Below are positions 46,423-52,622 of a DNA stretch of 64,000 bases, piece by piece. This DNA is from Bacteroidota bacterium (GTDB lineage Bacteria > Bacteroidota > Bacteroidia > Chitinophagales > Chitinophagaceae). The notes under the pieces were generated by a model. It did no database searches and had not been told where the DNA came from. It was given only the letters and a program-made list of their open reading frames with translations. The stretch is from positions 1 to 64,000 of the forward strand of contig JABDGS010000005.1 in NCBI GenBank assembly GCA_013285915.1, given 5' to 3'. The translations under genes and the position numbers were made by a program. The stretch's first letter is position 1; each line of letters opens with the position of its first letter.

Positions 46423-47337
46423 GTGCGAAAATTTTTCCTGACAATAATTGTTTTATTTCTTCTTCAAGCTTCCTTTGGCCAATCAATAAAAGTTACACTG
46501 TTAGGTACGGGAACTCCACAACCAATCATGGAACGTTTTGGGCCAAGTATCCTTGTTCAGGCAGGTAATAAAACTTTATTATTTGACGCAGGGCGTGGTT
46601 GCCTGCAACGATTACGCCAACTAAATTTAGGATATGATACTATTGATGCATTGTTTTTTACACATCTTCATTCAGATCATATTGTGGGACTACCCGATTT
46701 ATGGCTTACAGGATGGCTTTTAACAAAACGTAATAATCCTTTACCTGTTTTCGGACCAAAAGGATCTAAACAAATGACTGATCATCTGCAAAAAGCTTAT
46801 GAGTTTGATATTAAAATGCGAATAGAAGACGATAAATCCCCTCAAGAAGGAGGCAAACTAACAACTACTGATATAAAAGAGGGCACAGTTTATGAAAAGG
46901 ATGGAGTTAAAGTGATTGCATTCCTGGTAGATCATTATCCTGTTGTGCCAGCGTTTGGTTATAGAATAGAATATGCCGGGCATTCGGTTGTGCTCTCAGG
47001 AGATACCCGTTATTCAGAGAATTTAATCAAGTTCGCAAAAGGAACAGATCTACTGGTACATGAAGTAGCCATTGCCCCTGACACACTAAAAAAGACAGAC
47101 CCCAGGTATAATATATTGGCACACCACACCAGTCTTGAACAAGCATGCAAAGTGTTTAATGCAGTTAAGCCAAAACTTGCTGTTTACACTCATATTGTAA
47201 GTCTCTACCGGTATAAAACGGACGAAATAATTAAACGTACAAAACAAAATTATTCAAACCCTTTTGTATTGGGAGAAGACCTGATGATTTTCTCAGTTAG
47301 TGATACTGTGACTATAAAGGCCTGGGGTGAAAAATAA
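46423..47337 (+). CDS. Secreted MBL-fold metallo-hydrolase
   Basis: A 304-residue exported protein starting with GTG at 46423, followed by a signal peptide (LTIIVLFLLQASFGQ). THLHSDH (residues 80-86) is the HxHxDH zinc motif, and VVLSGDTRYSENL and LVHEVAI, with a late THIVS, supply further ligands. The overall pattern resembles RNase Z-like or arylsulfatase-type MBL enzymes (LLGTGTPQPIMERFGPSILV). The codon use is more AT-rich than most neighbours, which hints at transfer. It is alone on its strand. Confidence 0.9.
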   Translation: MRKFFLTIIVLFLLQASFGQSIKVTLLGTGTPQPIMERFGPSILVQAGNKTLLFDAGRGCLQRLRQLNLGYDTIDALFFTHLHSDHIVGLPDLWLTGWLLTKRNNPLPVFGPKGSKQMTDHLQKAYEFDIKMRIEDDKSPQEGGKLTTTDIKEGTVYEKDGVKVIAFLVDHYPVVPAFGYRIEYAGHSVVLSGDTRYSENLIKFAKGTDLLVHEVAIAPDTLKKTDPRYNILAHHTSLEQACKVFNAVKPKLAVYTHIVSLYRYKTDEIIKRTKQNYSNPFVLGEDLMIFSVSDTVTIKAWGEK

Positions 47338-47781
47338 TTATCGCTAACAGGTGGTTCGCGCAAGCGGGGCATGACGTTGTAACACCAGCTTTTGTGCATT
47401 TGCAAACTGCAGTTGGGGCGTGACCGTTTAATAATAAAATTTTCGTGTGACTTCCGCCCTGATGGTGCAAGCCGGTGCCAGTCAAAGACTGGCAGTAATA
47501 AGAAATCCTTAGAGCCCTTCGGAACTACGGAGAAAGAAGAGCTACTTACTATAAATATAAAAATGGGCAAAGTGTCTCGGGGGTGGCGAATTTTTTTAGC
47601 AGGCTTGGATGCAAATTTTAAAACTGCAAGGGCTGGTTTTTGAAAAGGCTAAAAGCGCTACGCGGGTTTTTTAGACAGAAGGGCTGTGTTGCATTTATAT
47701 TGCTTTGGAATTTTGAATAACATAGGGCGTCTCGCCACCTATCTAGCCTTTGCTTAAGGACACTGCGGAGAAGGGTAAGAA
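47338..47781. other. Intergenic region with inverted repeats
   Basis: About 440 bases. GCCAGTC-AAA-GACTGGC (47477-47493) is a perfect hairpin. GGTGGCGA (47582-47589) and TCGCCACC (47732-47739) are inverted 8-mers about 140 bases apart. The stretch at 47655-47680 resembles 35960-35984. No gene is supported. Confidence 0.4.
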
Positions 47782-50148
47782 TTAAAATGAGTTAAAAAAG
47801 CTAATCACACTATCAGGAGTATTTGTCTGTGATGTGATAACAGTACGTGAATTGCTTTCCAAAATGTCTATCAATCTAATATCAGCCTCACTAACATATC
47901 CTTTTTGGCAATCCCATAATGAATTAATTGATGAAAATCGAAACACATGAGCATTTATACTAAACTGTGATTTGCCATTAGGAACGGCCTTGAGGATTTT
48001 TAAAAATTCGGAAGAATTAATAGTATCGCCTTGCTCAATTTTGACATAGCGGCTATGAAGACCATAGTCGAAATAATCAGGAGGCAAAGTGAATGCCAAT
48101 TGTCTATCCTTTAGGTACGGGCTTTGTAAATAAGTTACGTAAACTCTGTCGTTAAGTAATTGTGGGCTGATTATTTGAATATCAGTCCGAAATTTGTATT
48201 TATTTTGAAAATACAATAACGAGTAAAAATCATTATCTCCATATGCAAGAATAAGGCTATTTGAGGGAGATGTGGAAAGTTTTTCTTTATAATACACAAA
48301 TGTTGACGAATCATACAAATTGTCCCTTAGAAATGAGCTTGCCGCACTGTTATCATATGTATAAATCTCAAGTAATCTATAACTATTAACACATTCATTT
48401 GAATATTTAATATTTATTTTTCCAACTGCTGTCTGGAAGTTTGGGTCATGTGATAGTATTTTTTTGAACGCTTCAATAGCTGATGTTTGATCTCTTATAA
48501 ATTTTTTTTTTCGTTCAGTTAAGCTTTCCTCTTTGTAGTTCGCTATTAGATTAAAGCCTTGATTTTCATATCCAATGTAGTCAAACGCCCTGCTTTCATA
48601 GGCTCTGGCGAGGACATAAAGCATTGTATCATTTAGAGTATTATAATAAGGTTCAATTAATTTTATCGCATCGTTGTTCCAACCGGGGTAACCATATGTA
48701 GGGCTGAAAGAATACATAAAAGAATCCGAAATGCTTCCTATAACATTTTCATTTGTGACTTGGTTTCCATCATATCTCTTACCCCATGTATTAATATTTT
48801 GGAACGAACTGGCTGTCATTGTCCAAATTGGAAATCGTTTACCTATTTTATATGAATCGCTATCTATAAAGAGAGAATCTACGTACCATCCATCTATTCT
48901 TTTCACAAACCTATATGAATCGCAGCCACTAGGTTTTGAATTACCCTTATAGAAAAAATTCAGAGTTTCCGAGAAGCTTGGAATATGTGGAGCGTTATAA
49001 GTCGCGATGTATTTATTATAACTGTAATAACCTATACTCAGGCATAACGCAAAGATTACGGCACCAGCTATTATTCTTTTAGTTTTGAAATTTAATCGCT
49101 GTTTTTTTACTTCGCTTTCAGGCACTCGCATTGGTTCGTCTTTGCGCTTCTCCTTTAATTCAATTTCTTGCTCTTCTTTTAGTTGAATTTCTTGCTTTTC
49201 GCCTAAGTTATTTTCGCTCCTTTTCTTAATACCCGGCAAAAAGTTATTCGGTTCGAAATTAGTTTGCTTATCAAATTGGATATTAGTTTGCTCTTTAGTG
49301 TTTTTATCATCATTGTCAAGTTTCTGAAGTTCTGAAAAAAAATAATTCAATTCTTCATGATCTTGATAACTAATAATTTCTACACCTCTTTTTCTCCATT
49401 CTGTTTTTAGTTCTTCATCATTAGTCAATATCAGAGAATAAACCGTTGGTGTCGCAGTTTTGAATATTTCTTTCAAATCCTCAAATAACGACAAGAAATC
49501 TGGATCTGTAAGAGAAAAACCTACAGTTAAAACTGGATTCAATAAAAAAAGGCTTTTCAGAATTGTTTGGTACTTAGGATTTTTTCGTAAGAGTAAATAA
49601 CTTTCCTCAGATAAAACTAAATTATCGTACAAATTGTATGTATGCTTAATACACCCGTGAATTTTAGCGAAAAAGCCATGTTCTCGAAATTTTTCAACAT
49701 CTTCAAACGCTTGGGGGTATATTAACGGAGAAAGCCTATTACTATTATGTTCAAAAACATAATCAAAATTAGTTGTGATAATACCTTTAAATTCTATTGA
49801 CAATAAAATCTGATGTATGTTTGAATTTACTAAATCTTTGGGATCAAGAAGTTCCCTCAAAAAGGCAGTGTATTGGTCATATCGAGTCTTTTCTTTATAG
49901 ATTTCTGCGATTTTAAGATATTCATTGGCTTTAAAATACTTATTTATTTCTTGTAGTGTTAATACGTCACATTTTCCACTATCCTTTAGATCGTCAATCA
50001 TTGCACTTATCAACTCTCTCCAAAGCGGCAGCCCTGCCCCATTTTTTCTCACCCCTTTTGCCGACAGCCCAGCCCCAACAAATAAAATGCAATTCCTTGG
50101 ATTTCCTTTTATTGCCCTAATAAATTGTTTACTGATATGAATAGCCAT
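47782..50148 (-). CDS. Transmembrane SIR2-domain protein with large extracytoplasmic C-terminus
   Basis: A 788-residue protein. Residues 1-275 form a SIR2_2-type domain: LFVGAGLSAKG (22-32), TTNFD (125-129), KIHG (162-165, with the catalytic His164), and VGFSLTDPDF (209-218). In antiphage proteins such as ThsA and DSR2, these domains hydrolyse NAD+. Residues 276-350 are a charged linker with repeated Glu/Lys/Gln units (EKQEIQLKEEQEIELKEKRK). Residues 358-375 are one membrane helix, with basic residues on the inside face (KKQRLNFKTKR). The last 410 residues should lie outside; NSLILAYGDNDFYSLLYFQ and TDIQIISPQLLND resemble the soluble C-terminal part of DUF2723 membrane proteins. The region is AT-rich and no partner gene adjoins it. 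The family of the N-terminus is sure; the role in defence is inference. Confidence 0.85.
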   Translation of the reverse strand: MAIHISKQFIRAIKGNPRNCILFVGAGLSAKGVRKNGAGLPLWRELISAMIDDLKDSGKCDVLTLQEINKYFKANEYLKIAEIYKEKTRYDQYTAFLRELLDPKDLVNSNIHQILLSIEFKGIITTNFDYVFEHNSNRLSPLIYPQAFEDVEKFREHGFFAKIHGCIKHTYNLYDNLVLSEESYLLLRKNPKYQTILKSLFLLNPVLTVGFSLTDPDFLSLFEDLKEIFKTATPTVYSLILTNDEELKTEWRKRGVEIISYQDHEELNYFFSELQKLDNDDKNTKEQTNIQFDKQTNFEPNNFLPGIKKRSENNLGEKQEIQLKEEQEIELKEKRKDEPMRVPESEVKKQRLNFKTKRIIAGAVIFALCLSIGYYSYNKYIATYNAPHIPSFSETLNFFYKGNSKPSGCDSYRFVKRIDGWYVDSLFIDSDSYKIGKRFPIWTMTASSFQNINTWGKRYDGNQVTNENVIGSISDSFMYSFSPTYGYPGWNNDAIKLIEPYYNTLNDTMLYVLARAYESRAFDYIGYENQGFNLIANYKEESLTERKKKFIRDQTSAIEAFKKILSHDPNFQTAVGKINIKYSNECVNSYRLLEIYTYDNSAASSFLRDNLYDSSTFVYYKEKLSTSPSNSLILAYGDNDFYSLLYFQNKYKFRTDIQIISPQLLNDRVYVTYLQSPYLKDRQLAFTLPPDYFDYGLHSRYVKIEQGDTINSSEFLKILKAVPNGKSQFSINAHVFRFSSINSLWDCQKGYVSEADIRLIDILESNSRTVITSQTNTPDSVISFFNSF

Positions 50149-50330
50149 TCTTCTCTCTAAAATTTATGTAATCTGACGTAATAATATGATTTTTATTCGG
50201 CATCAATGTAACTTTGCGCCTTAATTTGCGATAAAATTTCTACACTTGCTACTGTTTTTCTTCCGTTCTCCGCAGTTTGTATGTTTGAAGTCCGCGAATG
50301 AAGTTTAGTAAATTTAAGCAAACTAAATTT

Positions 50331-50926
50331 ATGGAAGCGCTATCAAAAAGCTAAGGGACTTCAACGGTCAGAATATTTATGTAGGCATGGATGTTCACCA
50401 TAAAAGCTGGAAGATTCATATTTATAGTGATGAGTTTGAACTAAAAGCCATGAGCCAGGAACCGGGGGTAGGGCAGTTGAACAATTACCTGCACACCCAT
50501 TACCCCGGTGCAAACTACCTGTTAGCTTACGAAGCTGGATTTTGCGGCTTTTGGATACAGCGGTCATTTGTGGCAAAAGGGATAAATTGCAAAGTAGTAC
50601 ATGCTGCCGATGTGCCAACAAGCGGTAAAGAACAGTTACGAAAAACCGATAAGGTGGACAGTAAAAAAATTGCAAAAGGCCTGAAAAACGGTGATTTAAA
50701 CTTTGTTCATGTTCCGGATATAGAACTGGAACTTGACAGGCAATTATTACGAAGCCGCGACAATTTAATAAAAGACAGCACACGTATAAAAAACCGGGTT
50801 AAAGCTATTTTAAAATTGCATGGCATAGAAGTGCCTCCTACGTTTAAAGATTGCACCTGGAGTAAGGCCTTTATTAAATGGCTGCAGCAAATAGACTTCC
50901 TTCCTCGCAGAGTGTCCATAGCCTAG
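50331..50926 (+). pseudogene. IS110-family transposase, frameshifted and truncated
   Basis: The N-terminal DEDD (RuvC-like) domain of an IS110 transposase is present: NIYVGMDVHHKSW, AYEAGFCGFWIQR, LRKTDKVDSKKIAKGLKNG, and RSRDNLIKDSTRIKNRVKAIL. The C-terminal transposase_20 domain with the catalytic Ser is missing; the frame ends at FLPRRVSIA within a hairpin repeat. The natural start appears to be the ATG at 50331 (MEALS), but the A-run in TCAAAAAGC has five A and puts the frame into a TAA. One more A, or a -1 slip, gives MEALSKKLRDFNGQ, so the 5' end is also broken. No intact partner copy is in the window. Confidence 0.85.
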
Positions 50927-50964: not shown

Positions 50965-51136
50965 ACCCAGCACAATAAAAGTACAACAGTTGGGTAATTC
51001 CTGACTCACTTAACTTAATATCTTACAAGGCCGTACAGCAGGCATTTTGATATATATTTGGCTGTAGCGCTGTATATGCCGCAGAGTCTGTCCCACACCA
51101 AAGGCCAGTGCTATGAACCTGCGGGAAGGAGAAAAA

Positions 51137-51947: not shown

Positions 51948-52079
51948 AAGCTATGGACAATCTTTTGTCACAATTGATATCGCCCGGAATTGAATTTAGC
52001 CATCCCCCAAAAAATAAATATCTCCAAAACAGCGGACAAAACAGCAGTTTTTATATATAAGTATATAAACAGTACTATT

Positions 52080-52622
52080 ATGCCGTATAAATTATCACCT
52101 GCGGCTTTGCAGGAAAAATGGCTGGCGTATTGCCGGCATTGCGATGAACATACCGTAACGCAGCGTTACCGTGACACATTGGTAAAGGTGCCAAAACCGG
52201 TTATTTATTCCGTTGAGGGGTTTTGCAATTTTGCAACTATAGGCGAAGATGAACTGGAACGGTACAGCAACAACAAAAACTACAAGGGGCTGGTTAAAGA
52301 TGTGCGTTTTTGGGTATTGTGCCGTAAAGTAGACGCATTGGTTAATGGCGAAGGCAGCACCACCGGGCTTGTATTTGACCTGAAGGTTAATTATGGTTTT
52401 AACCCTTTAAAACCGAGAACTGATGAGGACTGGAACATTACCCTTAACCTGGGTGATGAAAGCATTGGGCCACCACCCAGCGCAGAGGAGCGGCGGGAGA
52501 TTGCAGCCTTGAAACAGCGCACCCTGGAGGAGTACAGGCTTAAGGAAGCTGCGCGTATGCCCGAACCAGCGCCGGTGCCTCAGCCGGTGGTTGAGCAAAA
52601 GGCGAAGTATAGTGTATGGTAG
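52080..52622 (+). CDS. gp3-type terminase small subunit/DNA-packaging protein, isolated
   Basis: A protein of about 180 residues starting at MPYKLSPAALQEKW (52080); the earlier Met at 51990 adds 30 unrelated residues. It matches the phage DNA-packaging gp3 family: an N-terminal helix-turn-helix-like part (YSVEGFCNFATIGEDELERY), then KGLVKDVRFWVLCRKVDALV, NGEGSTTGLVFDLKVNYGFN, and a charged C-terminus. In phages it recognises the DNA for packaging. No large terminase, portal or capsid gene is near, so it looks like a prophage remnant. Confidence 0.75.
   Translation: MPYKLSPAALQEKWLAYCRHCDEHTVTQRYRDTLVKVPKPVIYSVEGFCNFATIGEDELERYSNNKNYKGLVKDVRFWVLCRKVDALVNGEGSTTGLVFDLKVNYGFNPLKPRTDEDWNITLNLGDESIGPPPSAEERREIAALKQRTLEEYRLKEAARMPEPAPVPQPVVEQKAKYSVW

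What the first reader, a model, noticed from the sequence alone, without database searches (positions are those of the whole stretch)
47782..50148. SIR2 NADase-type domain joined by a single membrane helix to a large outside domain
The N-terminus has all SIR2 motifs (VGAGLS, TTNFD, HG with His164), as in defence NADases. Residues 358-375 are a membrane helix and about 410 residues should lie outside. That C-terminus resembles the soluble tail of DUF2723 proteins. Known SIR2 defence proteins are cytosolic, so this looks like a transmembrane sensor-effector: an envelope signal could trigger NAD+ loss. No partner gene is seen, so it may act alone.
Basis: partly seen in the sequence, partly recalled or inferred. 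Interest (0 to 1): 0.78.

Follow-up and report, generated by a model that had tools for sequence, protein, structure and literature searches.

The report
Membrane-spanning SIR2 NADase with periplasmic domain
A bacterium carries one gene that joins an immune enzyme of the NAD-destroying kind, by a single membrane helix, to a protein part that in its relatives is exported from the cell interior, which suggests (untested) an alarm that senses trouble at the cell envelope and acts inside.

Summary
On the MINUS strand, window 47785-50148 encodes an intact 788-residue protein: a SIR2 domain of the phage-defence NADase group (PF13289 2.2e-23; fold matches ThsA, DSR2, KomC; Asn127 and His164 kept), a charged linker, one predicted membrane helix (359-377) and a 405-residue C-terminal domain. 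That domain is homologous over its length to a widespread Bacteroidota family of stand-alone exported proteins; only its second half is shared with tails of TMEM260-like (old DUF2723) proteins. The helix sits where the relatives have their signal peptide, with the basic side towards SIR2, so the C-terminus should be periplasmic. The fusion is so far a singleton: 1 of 61 distinct full-length relatives; none of 68 other SIR2 proteins tested in the family has a comparable membrane segment. No partner gene or defence island was seen in the window. Low GC runs evenly through both halves, which speaks against a chimeric assembly. Best reading: a one-protein outside-in NADase receptor with ToxR/CadC-like orientation, probably defensive. 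NADase activity, topology, ligand and defence are untested. Main rival: a young fusion whose outer half is only a tether or leftover.

The parts
47785..50148 (-). SIR2-TM-periplasmic fusion protein, 788 residues (stop at 47782-47784)
   Evidence: intact ORF with ATG start
49324..50148 (-). SIR2 domain, residues 1-275
   Evidence: PF13289 E 2.2e-23; PADLOC LmuA 5.3e-14 and ThsA 5.5e-13; PDB KomC 8zsf 2.3e-6; fold search DSR2/KomC/ThsA
49768..49770 (-). Asn127 of TTNFD, taken as equivalent to catalytic DSR2 N133
   Evidence: invariant in A3, A5, A7; role of N133 from PMC10981675 (passages); the equivalence itself rests on the shared motif and is recalled
49657..49659 (-). His164 of the HG motif, taken as equivalent to DSR2 H171
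   Evidence: invariant in A3, A5, A7; role of H171 from PMC10981675 (passages); equivalence by motif, recalled
49099..49323 (-). charged linker, residues 276-350 (45% K/R/D/E), with a 24-nt direct repeat inside (49146-49193)
49018..49074 (-). single predicted transmembrane helix, residues 359-377; 7 K/R in the 20 residues before, 1 after
   Evidence: profile position 1 (start of the exported relatives) falls at about residue 361-362
47785..48999 (-). predicted periplasmic domain, residues 384-788
   Evidence: homologous to stand-alone exported proteins; AlphaFold2 of residues 375-788: pLDDT 82.9, pTM 0.85
47944..48288 (-). part shared with TMEM260-like (DUF2723) tails, residues about 621-735, with GDND at 637-640

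Best explanation
It is a one-protein, outside-in NADase receptor. The N-terminal SIR2 domain lies in the cytosol and is held inactive; a charged linker and one membrane helix join it to a periplasmic domain taken from a Bacteroidota exported-protein family. When the periplasmic domain meets a signal (a phage structural protein during entry, or a disturbed or foreign envelope component), it dimerises, clusters or changes shape; the SIR2 domains are brought together and cleave NAD+, so the infected cell stops. Shown here by sequence: the ORF, the SIR2 fold class and catalytic residues, a membrane-type segment, homology of the C-terminus to exported proteins, no partner gene in the window. Inferred: topology in the cell, NADase activity, activation by clustering, the identity of the signal, and a defence role.
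For: SIR2 domain sits with defence NADases: Foldseek best hits DSR2 8wy9 1.1e-8, KomC 9xvc 3.0e-8, FAM118B 9r0p 3.7e-8; VIA-align ThsA 8btp Z 16.5, rmsd 4.6, 253 aligned; DSR2 8wy9 Z 16.3; KomC 9xvc Z 16.2; Avs5 9jap Z 15.7. Asn127/His164 invariant. The membrane segment is outstanding against 68 controls and basic on the SIR2 side. All 60 other distinct full-length relatives of the C-domain examined have at most 66 residues before the domain start and a hydrophobic stretch near the N-terminus (15-residue mean 1.26-2.87; signal peptides judged by eye and hydrophobicity); the window alone has about 361 residues before it, and its helix falls at the signal-peptide position. The C-domain keeps 19 of 22 columns that are at least 90% conserved in 18 relatives although only 18-25% identical to them, so it looks folded and constrained. 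GC is equally low in SIR2 (0.320), linker (0.342) and C-domain (0.335) against 0.414 for the window, as if both halves had the same history. Relatives of the SIR2 part form helical assemblies or filaments (entry titles for ThsA, KomC, Avs5, FAM118B), which makes receptor clustering a plausible switch. Precedents for defence at the inner membrane: SNIPE (PMC13190303, passages) and Kiwa (title in its reference list).
Against: No second example of the fusion in the genomes searched or among 20 named loci, so no test by recurrence. No defence island: of 51 window ORFs PADLOC at 1e-5 gives this gene plus one weak PDC-M60B (2.5e-6) and one weak Cas3a2 (2.7e-6) hit in other ORFs that I did not look up. 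The exported relatives whose neighbours I scanned sit among housekeeping genes, which gives no hint that the domain is a pathogen sensor. The SIR2 model is only moderate (pLDDT 62.3), and on it the E. coli SIR2 of SIR2-HerA (8sxx) scores no better (Z 9.8) than a deacetylase Sir2 (1szc, Z 9.8), so the fold score alone does not part the two functions. No ligand pocket or activity of the outer domain is known; its Foldseek search gave nothing better than E 0.29. The C-domain is on a long branch (2.66 against a median of 1.01), which could mean adaptation or loss of constraint.
Confidence: 0.47

Rival explanations
The trigger would be cytosolic.
For: Singleton (1 of 61); 0 of 68 other SIR2 proteins tested in the family show such a membrane segment; an IS110 remnant 50387-50926 and REP-like fragments flank the gene; long C-domain branch; restraint by membrane anchoring is reported for SNIPE (PMC13190303, passages).
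Against: The C-domain keeps 19 of 22 conserved columns, which a mere passenger need not; the whole 405-residue domain is retained.
Confidence: 0.25
2. A housekeeping or metabolic two-domain enzyme of the envelope: the outer domain does what the stand-alone exported family and the TMEM260-like tail do (perhaps binding acceptor proteins of periplasmic O-glycosylation), and the SIR2 part uses NAD+ for regulation, not for killing.
For: The shared block with TMEM260-like tails (human TMEM260 9rql E 3.5e-4; listed matches to frames of roughly 1000 residues or more down to 9e-36, of which the one in the window's own genome was checked to be TMEM260-like); stand-alone relatives next to S4-domain, M20 peptidase and translation genes.
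Against: The SIR2 part is nearer to most NADase effectors than to a deacetylase; gene has unusual base composition, and no full-length C-domain was found in the two genus relatives searched, one 99% complete, so it is not a core function.
Confidence: 0.15
3. Toxin or guard of another conflict, not phage defence: contact-dependent or interbacterial attack, or plasmid exclusion, sensed at the periplasm.
For: Topology would suit any envelope signal; nothing found ties it to phages: 1 of 50,697 phage records and 44 of 72,556 plasmid records match, the listed ones over the SIR2 part only.
Against: No secretion or immunity gene recognised among the ten neighbours scanned; SIR2 NADases of this fold with known roles are mostly antiphage (recalled, and titles).
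Confidence: 0.08
4. Assembly chimera or sequencing artefact joining two genes in a 63% complete draft genome.
For: Genome is incomplete, 226 contigs; singleton.
Against: One open frame through both halves and linker; equal GC across the junction; the join replaces exactly the signal peptide region and keeps a basic inside flank.
Confidence: 0.05

Closest known systems
ThsA (Thoeris SIR2-SLOG effector)
   Same: SIR2 NADase fold (VIA Z 16.5; PADLOC 5.5e-13), same catalytic motifs
   Different: ThsA has a SLOG domain that binds cyclic ADP-ribose made by ThsB (PMC11204291 passages); here no SLOG by Pfam, no TIR neighbour, and a membrane helix
DSR2
   Same: N-terminal SIR2 NADase with a large C-terminal part; one polypeptide recognises a phage protein directly (PMC10981675 passages)
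   Different: DSR2 recognises a tail tube protein through its own C-terminal domain and has no membrane part (recalled); the sister model Dsr1 hits here only at 0.046 over the SIR2 part
KomC (Kongming SIR2)
   Same: closest solved sequence (E 2.3e-6)
   Different: KomC is a SIR2 domain alone, 264 residues in the PDB entry, and is seen in complexes with KomB (entry titles)
Lamassu LmuA with SIR2
   Same: best PADLOC model (5.3e-14, residues 18-315)
   Different: no Lamassu partner model hit among 51 window ORFs
TMEM260-like protein O-mannosyltransferases (PF11028, formerly DUF2723)
   Same: about 115 residues of the outer domain with the GDND-Q-R-D pattern
   Different: no multi-helix glycosyltransferase part; the first half of the outer domain is not in the matched block
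Stand-alone exported Bacteroidota family (unnamed; members scanned match no Pfam or NCBIfam model over its cut-off)
   Same: whole C-terminal domain
   Different: these have a signal peptide-like start and no SIR2 part
ToxR/CadC-type receptors (recalled)
   Same: cytosolic N-terminal output domain, one helix, periplasmic C-terminal sensor
   Different: output there is DNA binding, here an NADase; no homology claimed
SNIPE and Kiwa
   Same: antiphage proteins at the inner membrane (PMC13190303 passages; Kiwa title only)
   Different: unrelated proteins; in SNIPE the nuclease and the DUF4041 domain are both cytoplasmic

Membership tests
SIR2 NADase defence effectors (broad group) | SIR2_2-type Rossmann domain | tested here: met
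   PF13289 2.2e-23; fold hits DSR2, KomC, ThsA, on a model of only pLDDT 62.3
SIR2 NADase defence effectors (broad group) | catalytic Asn and His | tested here: met
   N127 and H164 invariant in A3, A5, A7; DSR2 N133/H171 needed for NADase (PMC10981675 passages)
SIR2 NADase defence effectors (broad group) | NAD+ hydrolysis on infection | not testable with these tools
   needs an assay
Thoeris | ThsA with SLOG domain plus ThsB (TIR) gene | tested here: not met
   no SLOG by Pfam; no ThsB model hit among 51 window ORFs at 1e-5 and no TIR in the ten neighbours by Pfam; genes elsewhere in the genome were not looked for
Kongming | KomA and KomB beside a stand-alone SIR2 protein | tested here: inconclusive
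   the protein is not a SIR2 domain alone; the ten neighbours show no nucleotide deaminase or HAM1-type domain by Pfam (expected domains recalled), but PADLOC of 2023 may lack the system
Lamassu | LmuB SMC-type partner | tested here: not met
   only LmuA models hit, none for LmuB, in 51 window ORFs
TMEM260-like O-mannosyltransferase (PF11028) | N-terminal multi-helix PF11028 domain | tested here: not met
   absent from the window protein; present in the relative on contig C87, 1.4e-70
TMEM260-like O-mannosyltransferase (PF11028) | C-terminal lumenal/periplasmic block | tested here: met
Stand-alone exported Bacteroidota family | homology over the full domain | tested here: met
   independent BLAST hit E 5.1e-32 over residues 384-739; profile positions 11-441 of 451 (the window is itself one of the 7 rows of A1)
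Stand-alone exported Bacteroidota family | N-terminal signal peptide directly before the domain | tested here: not met
   about 361 residues precede the domain; an internal helix takes the place
ToxR/CadC-like topology (what it works like) | N-terminus inside, one helix, C-terminus outside | tested here: inconclusive
   predicted from hydrophobicity, charge and exported homologues; no experiment

The most novel reading that the evidence does not exclude
A bacterial counterpart of a Toll-like receptor in layout: an extracytoplasmic, partly TPR-like sensor domain, one membrane helix and a cytosolic NADase in one polypeptide, so that an event in the periplasm (phage entry or envelope damage) is turned directly into NAD+ loss without a second messenger or partner gene. 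It would be the first SIR2 effector with an extracytoplasmic input known to me.
Probability: 0.35. Interest if true: 0.85.

Novelty: new variant of a known kind. Interest (0 to 1): 0.6.

Why it matters
The SIR2 defence effectors I know are switched on by cytosolic cues: a messenger, a phage protein or nucleic acid inside the cell (recalled; Thoeris and DSR2 also from passages). A SIR2 NADase wired to the periplasm would move the alarm to the earliest step of infection and would show that NADase effectors can be plugged onto envelope receptors, as TIR domains are in animals (recalled). It also points to a large, unnamed Bacteroidota family of exported proteins, with no Pfam or NCBIfam match over cut-off among the members scanned, that shares a block with the tails of TMEM260-like O-mannosyltransferases, including the human one.

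Tried and rejected
Close full-length relatives by pattern scans: genome contigs and viral contigs gave none; plasmids and phages gave no match covering 80% of the query, and the listed rows match the SIR2 part only. Full-length SIR2+C-domain alignment for folding (A6) was misaligned by MAFFT and not folded; the halves were folded apart. Fold of the outer domain: Foldseek best E 0.29; VIA-align best Csx29 Z 8.6, rmsd 3.8, 124 aligned, then IFIT5 8.1: for helical repeats this is within the range of common arrangements, so I say only 'TPR-like middle'. TMEM260 is absent from the 50 rows shown of each fold list; that is no evidence of difference.

Mobile cassette: the gene is flanked by an inverted repeat (47762-47775 and 50263-50276, 14 nt, 93%), and an 11-base core occurs 13 times in the genome against 0 for the pattern read backwards. 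In two other contigs it is part of a longer repeat of roughly 100 bases with an inner inverted stem, that is, REP-like intergenic elements (name recalled); I therefore reject cassette ends. A nearby ORF that I took for a REP-type transposase by eye has no Pfam match at 0.001 (L229 2137-2805). Tree of the C-domain: the window has no supported neighbour and long branches meet (with L053), so the origin of the domain is unresolved. Defence island: not seen; the MBL-fold neighbour has only weak PADLOC matches (LmuA 1.3e-4, RTasMBL 1.2e-3). ORFs under 100 residues, and ORFs overlapping a longer one, were not among the 51; three such ORFs beside the gene were checked (three; two of them).

Counts: the SIR2_2 search gave 92 places in 64 of 294 family genomes, window included; of the 91 others I fetched the 68 with open frames of 400 or more residues and left out 23 shorter ones. 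In each fetched stretch the ORF was picked by the A3 profile; 67 of 68 scored E 0.01 or better, L206 only E 3. One search flagged two segments above threshold: L172 (its SIR2 core) and L185 (1.74, in a 1285-residue protein). Genome searches overlap in their genomes and score only a few candidates per genome: 294, 396 (22), 3 (23), 395 (25), 394 (66), 213 (111). Full-length hits without fetched loci (two) were judged by frame length only (585 and 665). The profile used was built from A1, which contains the window row; one search dropped identical and contained sequences before counting 61; one of them, L052, is cut by a contig end.

Literature: ten searches listed no paper that I could recognise, from titles and abstract starts, as describing a SIR2 protein with an extracytoplasmic domain; the lists were capped and only open-licence PMC papers are held. 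Passages (not whole texts) were read in PMC9519451, PMC13190303, PMC11204291, PMC10981675, PMC7159879, PMC8195603. The passages of the last two mention computed conflict systems with extracellular domains reached through TM helices, none of them a SIR2 receptor.
Full report
WHAT IS THERE. The reported interval holds one intact gene on the minus strand, 47785-50148, 788 residues with an ATG start, stop at 47782-47784. The window lies on contig C5 of a draft genome of 4.26 Mb, 63% complete. Its family is Chitinophagaceae by inference: the same-family genome G003 has a contig of 116,959 bases, the length of the Terrimonas ferruginea contig that carries the same gene, and that species is Chitinophagaceae. 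The gene stands alone: the convincing neighbours run on the other strand, a metallo-beta-lactamase-fold hydrolase (46423-47337) and the front part of an IS110 transposase (50387-50926). Small ORFs that overlap these genes match nothing.

SIR2 HALF. Pfam gives SIR2_2 at 2.2e-23. PADLOC gives LmuA 5.3e-14 (residues 18-315) and ThsA 5.5e-13 (7-247). In the PDB by sequence, KomC is nearest (2.3e-6), then ThsA (7.6e-3). Asn127 and His164 are invariant in three alignments with other SIR2 proteins; their DSR2 equivalents N133 and H171 are needed for NADase activity (PMC10981675, passages). A model from 8 sequences is only moderate (pLDDT 62.3, pTM 0.58) but finds 88 structures at E 0.001 or better, led by DSR2, KomC and FAM118B; by VIA-align ThsA, DSR2, KomC and Avs5 score Z 15.7-16.5, SPARSA 13-14, SIR2 chains of SIR2-HerA entries 9.8-13.2, and a deacetylase Sir2 9.8. 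The nearest structures are thus defence NADases, although the lowest-scoring defence SIR2 ties with the deacetylase. That the protein hydrolyses NAD+ is inference.

MEMBRANE HELIX. Residues 359-377 are hydrophobic (mean 1.80), with seven K/R in the 20 residues before and one in the 20 after. Among 68 other SIR2 proteins of the family with frames of at least 400 residues, none has such a segment after residue 330: best 1.74, and on a second (recalled) scale 5.2 at best against 1.3 for the window (loci, hits; 23 shorter frames were left out). Hydrophobicity alone would be weak, since a stretch inside the SIR2 domain of L015 reaches 1.85; the position argument below is stronger.

OUTER HALF. A BLAST search of 294 family genomes with the whole protein matched the C-terminus in six proteins with open frames of 441-633 residues, the best 5.1e-32 over residues 384-739. 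They begin with signal peptide-like sequences. A profile of seven rows (A1, window included) found more: 371 of 396 order genomes match at 1e-20, in the (capped) list mostly through the tail block only; at 1e-40 there are 22 of 395 class genomes, 10 of 394 family genomes and 1 of 213 phylum genomes, the window's own included each time. Of 61 distinct full-length proteins, 60 have at most 66 residues before the domain start, with a hydrophobic stretch near the N-terminus; the window has about 361, so that the start of the relatives corresponds to residue 361-362 and their signal peptides to the region of its helix. This is the best evidence that residues 378-788 are outside the cytosol. The second half of the domain (about residues 621-735, GDND motif) is shared with the tails of long proteins, mostly about 1000-1200 residues; the one in the window's own genome (profile E 1.7e-25) is TMEM260-like, PF11028, at 1.4e-70, and the profile also finds human TMEM260 (9rql, 3.5e-4). 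The domain models well (pLDDT 82.9, pTM 0.85, 19 sequences): a beta-rich start, a helical TPR-like middle, an alpha/beta block with GDND, a mixed end. No solved structure matches clearly. The window keeps 19 of 22 columns conserved in at least 90% of 18 relatives; in a leave-one-out count the other rows keep 20-21 of 21-25.

SETTING OF RELATIVES. In 20 named loci with up to 8 kb on each side, 248 ORFs were listed and none carried the two SIR2 motifs together (a motif check, not a profile). In five loci (L096, L098, L104, L106, L109) an S4-domain gene lies directly upstream, and in the three whose downstream gene I scanned (L096, L104, L109) it is an M20 peptidase. There the stand-alone protein looks like an old chromosomal gene of unknown function, not a defence gene. 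The neighbours of the other 15 loci were listed but not scanned against families.

ORIGIN. GC is 0.320 in the SIR2 part, 0.342 in the linker and 0.335 in the C-domain, with third-position GC 0.255-0.347, against 0.414 for the window. The MBL-fold neighbour is also low at third positions (0.26), so this is not unique. Equal composition through the junction speaks against a chimera and fits, without proving, acquisition as one gene. The tree of 61 rows does not place the window's domain (end branch 2.66, no supported group). The two genus relatives, one of them 99% complete, gave only tail-block matches.

MECHANISM. The simplest reading is a receptor with ToxR/CadC-like orientation in which the output domain is an NADase. 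Relatives of the SIR2 part form filaments or helical assemblies (entry titles), so clustering by an outside signal would be a fitting switch. What is sensed cannot be said; the kinship with O-mannosyltransferase tails makes glycosylated envelope proteins or their acceptor stretches a speculation worth a test. The main rival is that the outer half only tethers the enzyme, as the membrane helix of SNIPE restrains its nuclease (PMC13190303, passages).

MEMBERSHIP. It can be filed in the broad group of SIR2 defence-type NADases by fold and residues. It lacks the defining extra parts of Thoeris and Lamassu in this window, and it is not a TMEM260-like transferase. It works, on paper, like a ToxR-type receptor without being one.

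NOVELTY. The SIR2 effector is known; the wiring is new to me and I recognised it in none of ten literature searches. It is a single case without a functional test, hence interest 0.6 and 'new variant of a known kind'.

Noticed in passing
L003-L008, L036-L050, L066-L109 (most of them): A large Bacteroidota family of stand-alone exported proteins (about 440-770 residues, signal peptide- or lipoprotein-like start). The members scanned match no Pfam (seven rows of A1; L036, L071, L099) or NCBIfam model (seven rows of A1; L036, L071, L099, L104) over its cut-off, only weak ones such as DUF5049 0.028, LolA3 0.014 and a TPR in L099. The family shares a block with TMEM260-like tails; in five loci it lies beside an S4-domain gene.
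   Followed up: partly
47762-47775, 50263-50276 and 51079-51088; also contigs C1, C46, C69, C74, C96 of the genome: REP-like intergenic repeats with the core CTGCGGAGAAG (13 exact copies in the draft genome, 0 for the backward control); fragments flank the SIR2 gene as an inverted repeat.
   Followed up: partly
50387-50926: Front part of an IS110 transposase (DEDD_Tnp_IS110 3.5e-12), seemingly cut short, beside the SIR2 gene.
   Followed up: no
46423-47337: MBL-fold hydrolase with a signal peptide-like start; weak below-cutoff matches to Anti-Pycsar Apyc1 (9.1e-4), PADLOC LmuA (1.3e-4) and RTasMBL (1.2e-3) besides a strong Lactamase_B_2 match.
   Followed up: no
51990-52622: Protein with a match to a DNA-packaging protein gp3 (GP3_package 4.6e-8, scanned from 52080), a possible phage remnant.
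   Followed up: no
window, ORFs not identified: Two weak PADLOC hits among the 51 window ORFs, PDC-M60B 2.5e-6 and Cas3a2 2.7e-6, in ORFs other than the SIR2 gene.
   Followed up: no
L205 3455-6223 (contig C18 of the same genome): A second SIR2_2 protein of 922 residues in the same genome (4.7e-8, residues 183-318), without a membrane segment.
   Followed up: partly
49146-49193: A 24-base tandem pair inside the charged linker (residues about 319-335), 79% alike: a repeat that could change linker length.
   Followed up: no
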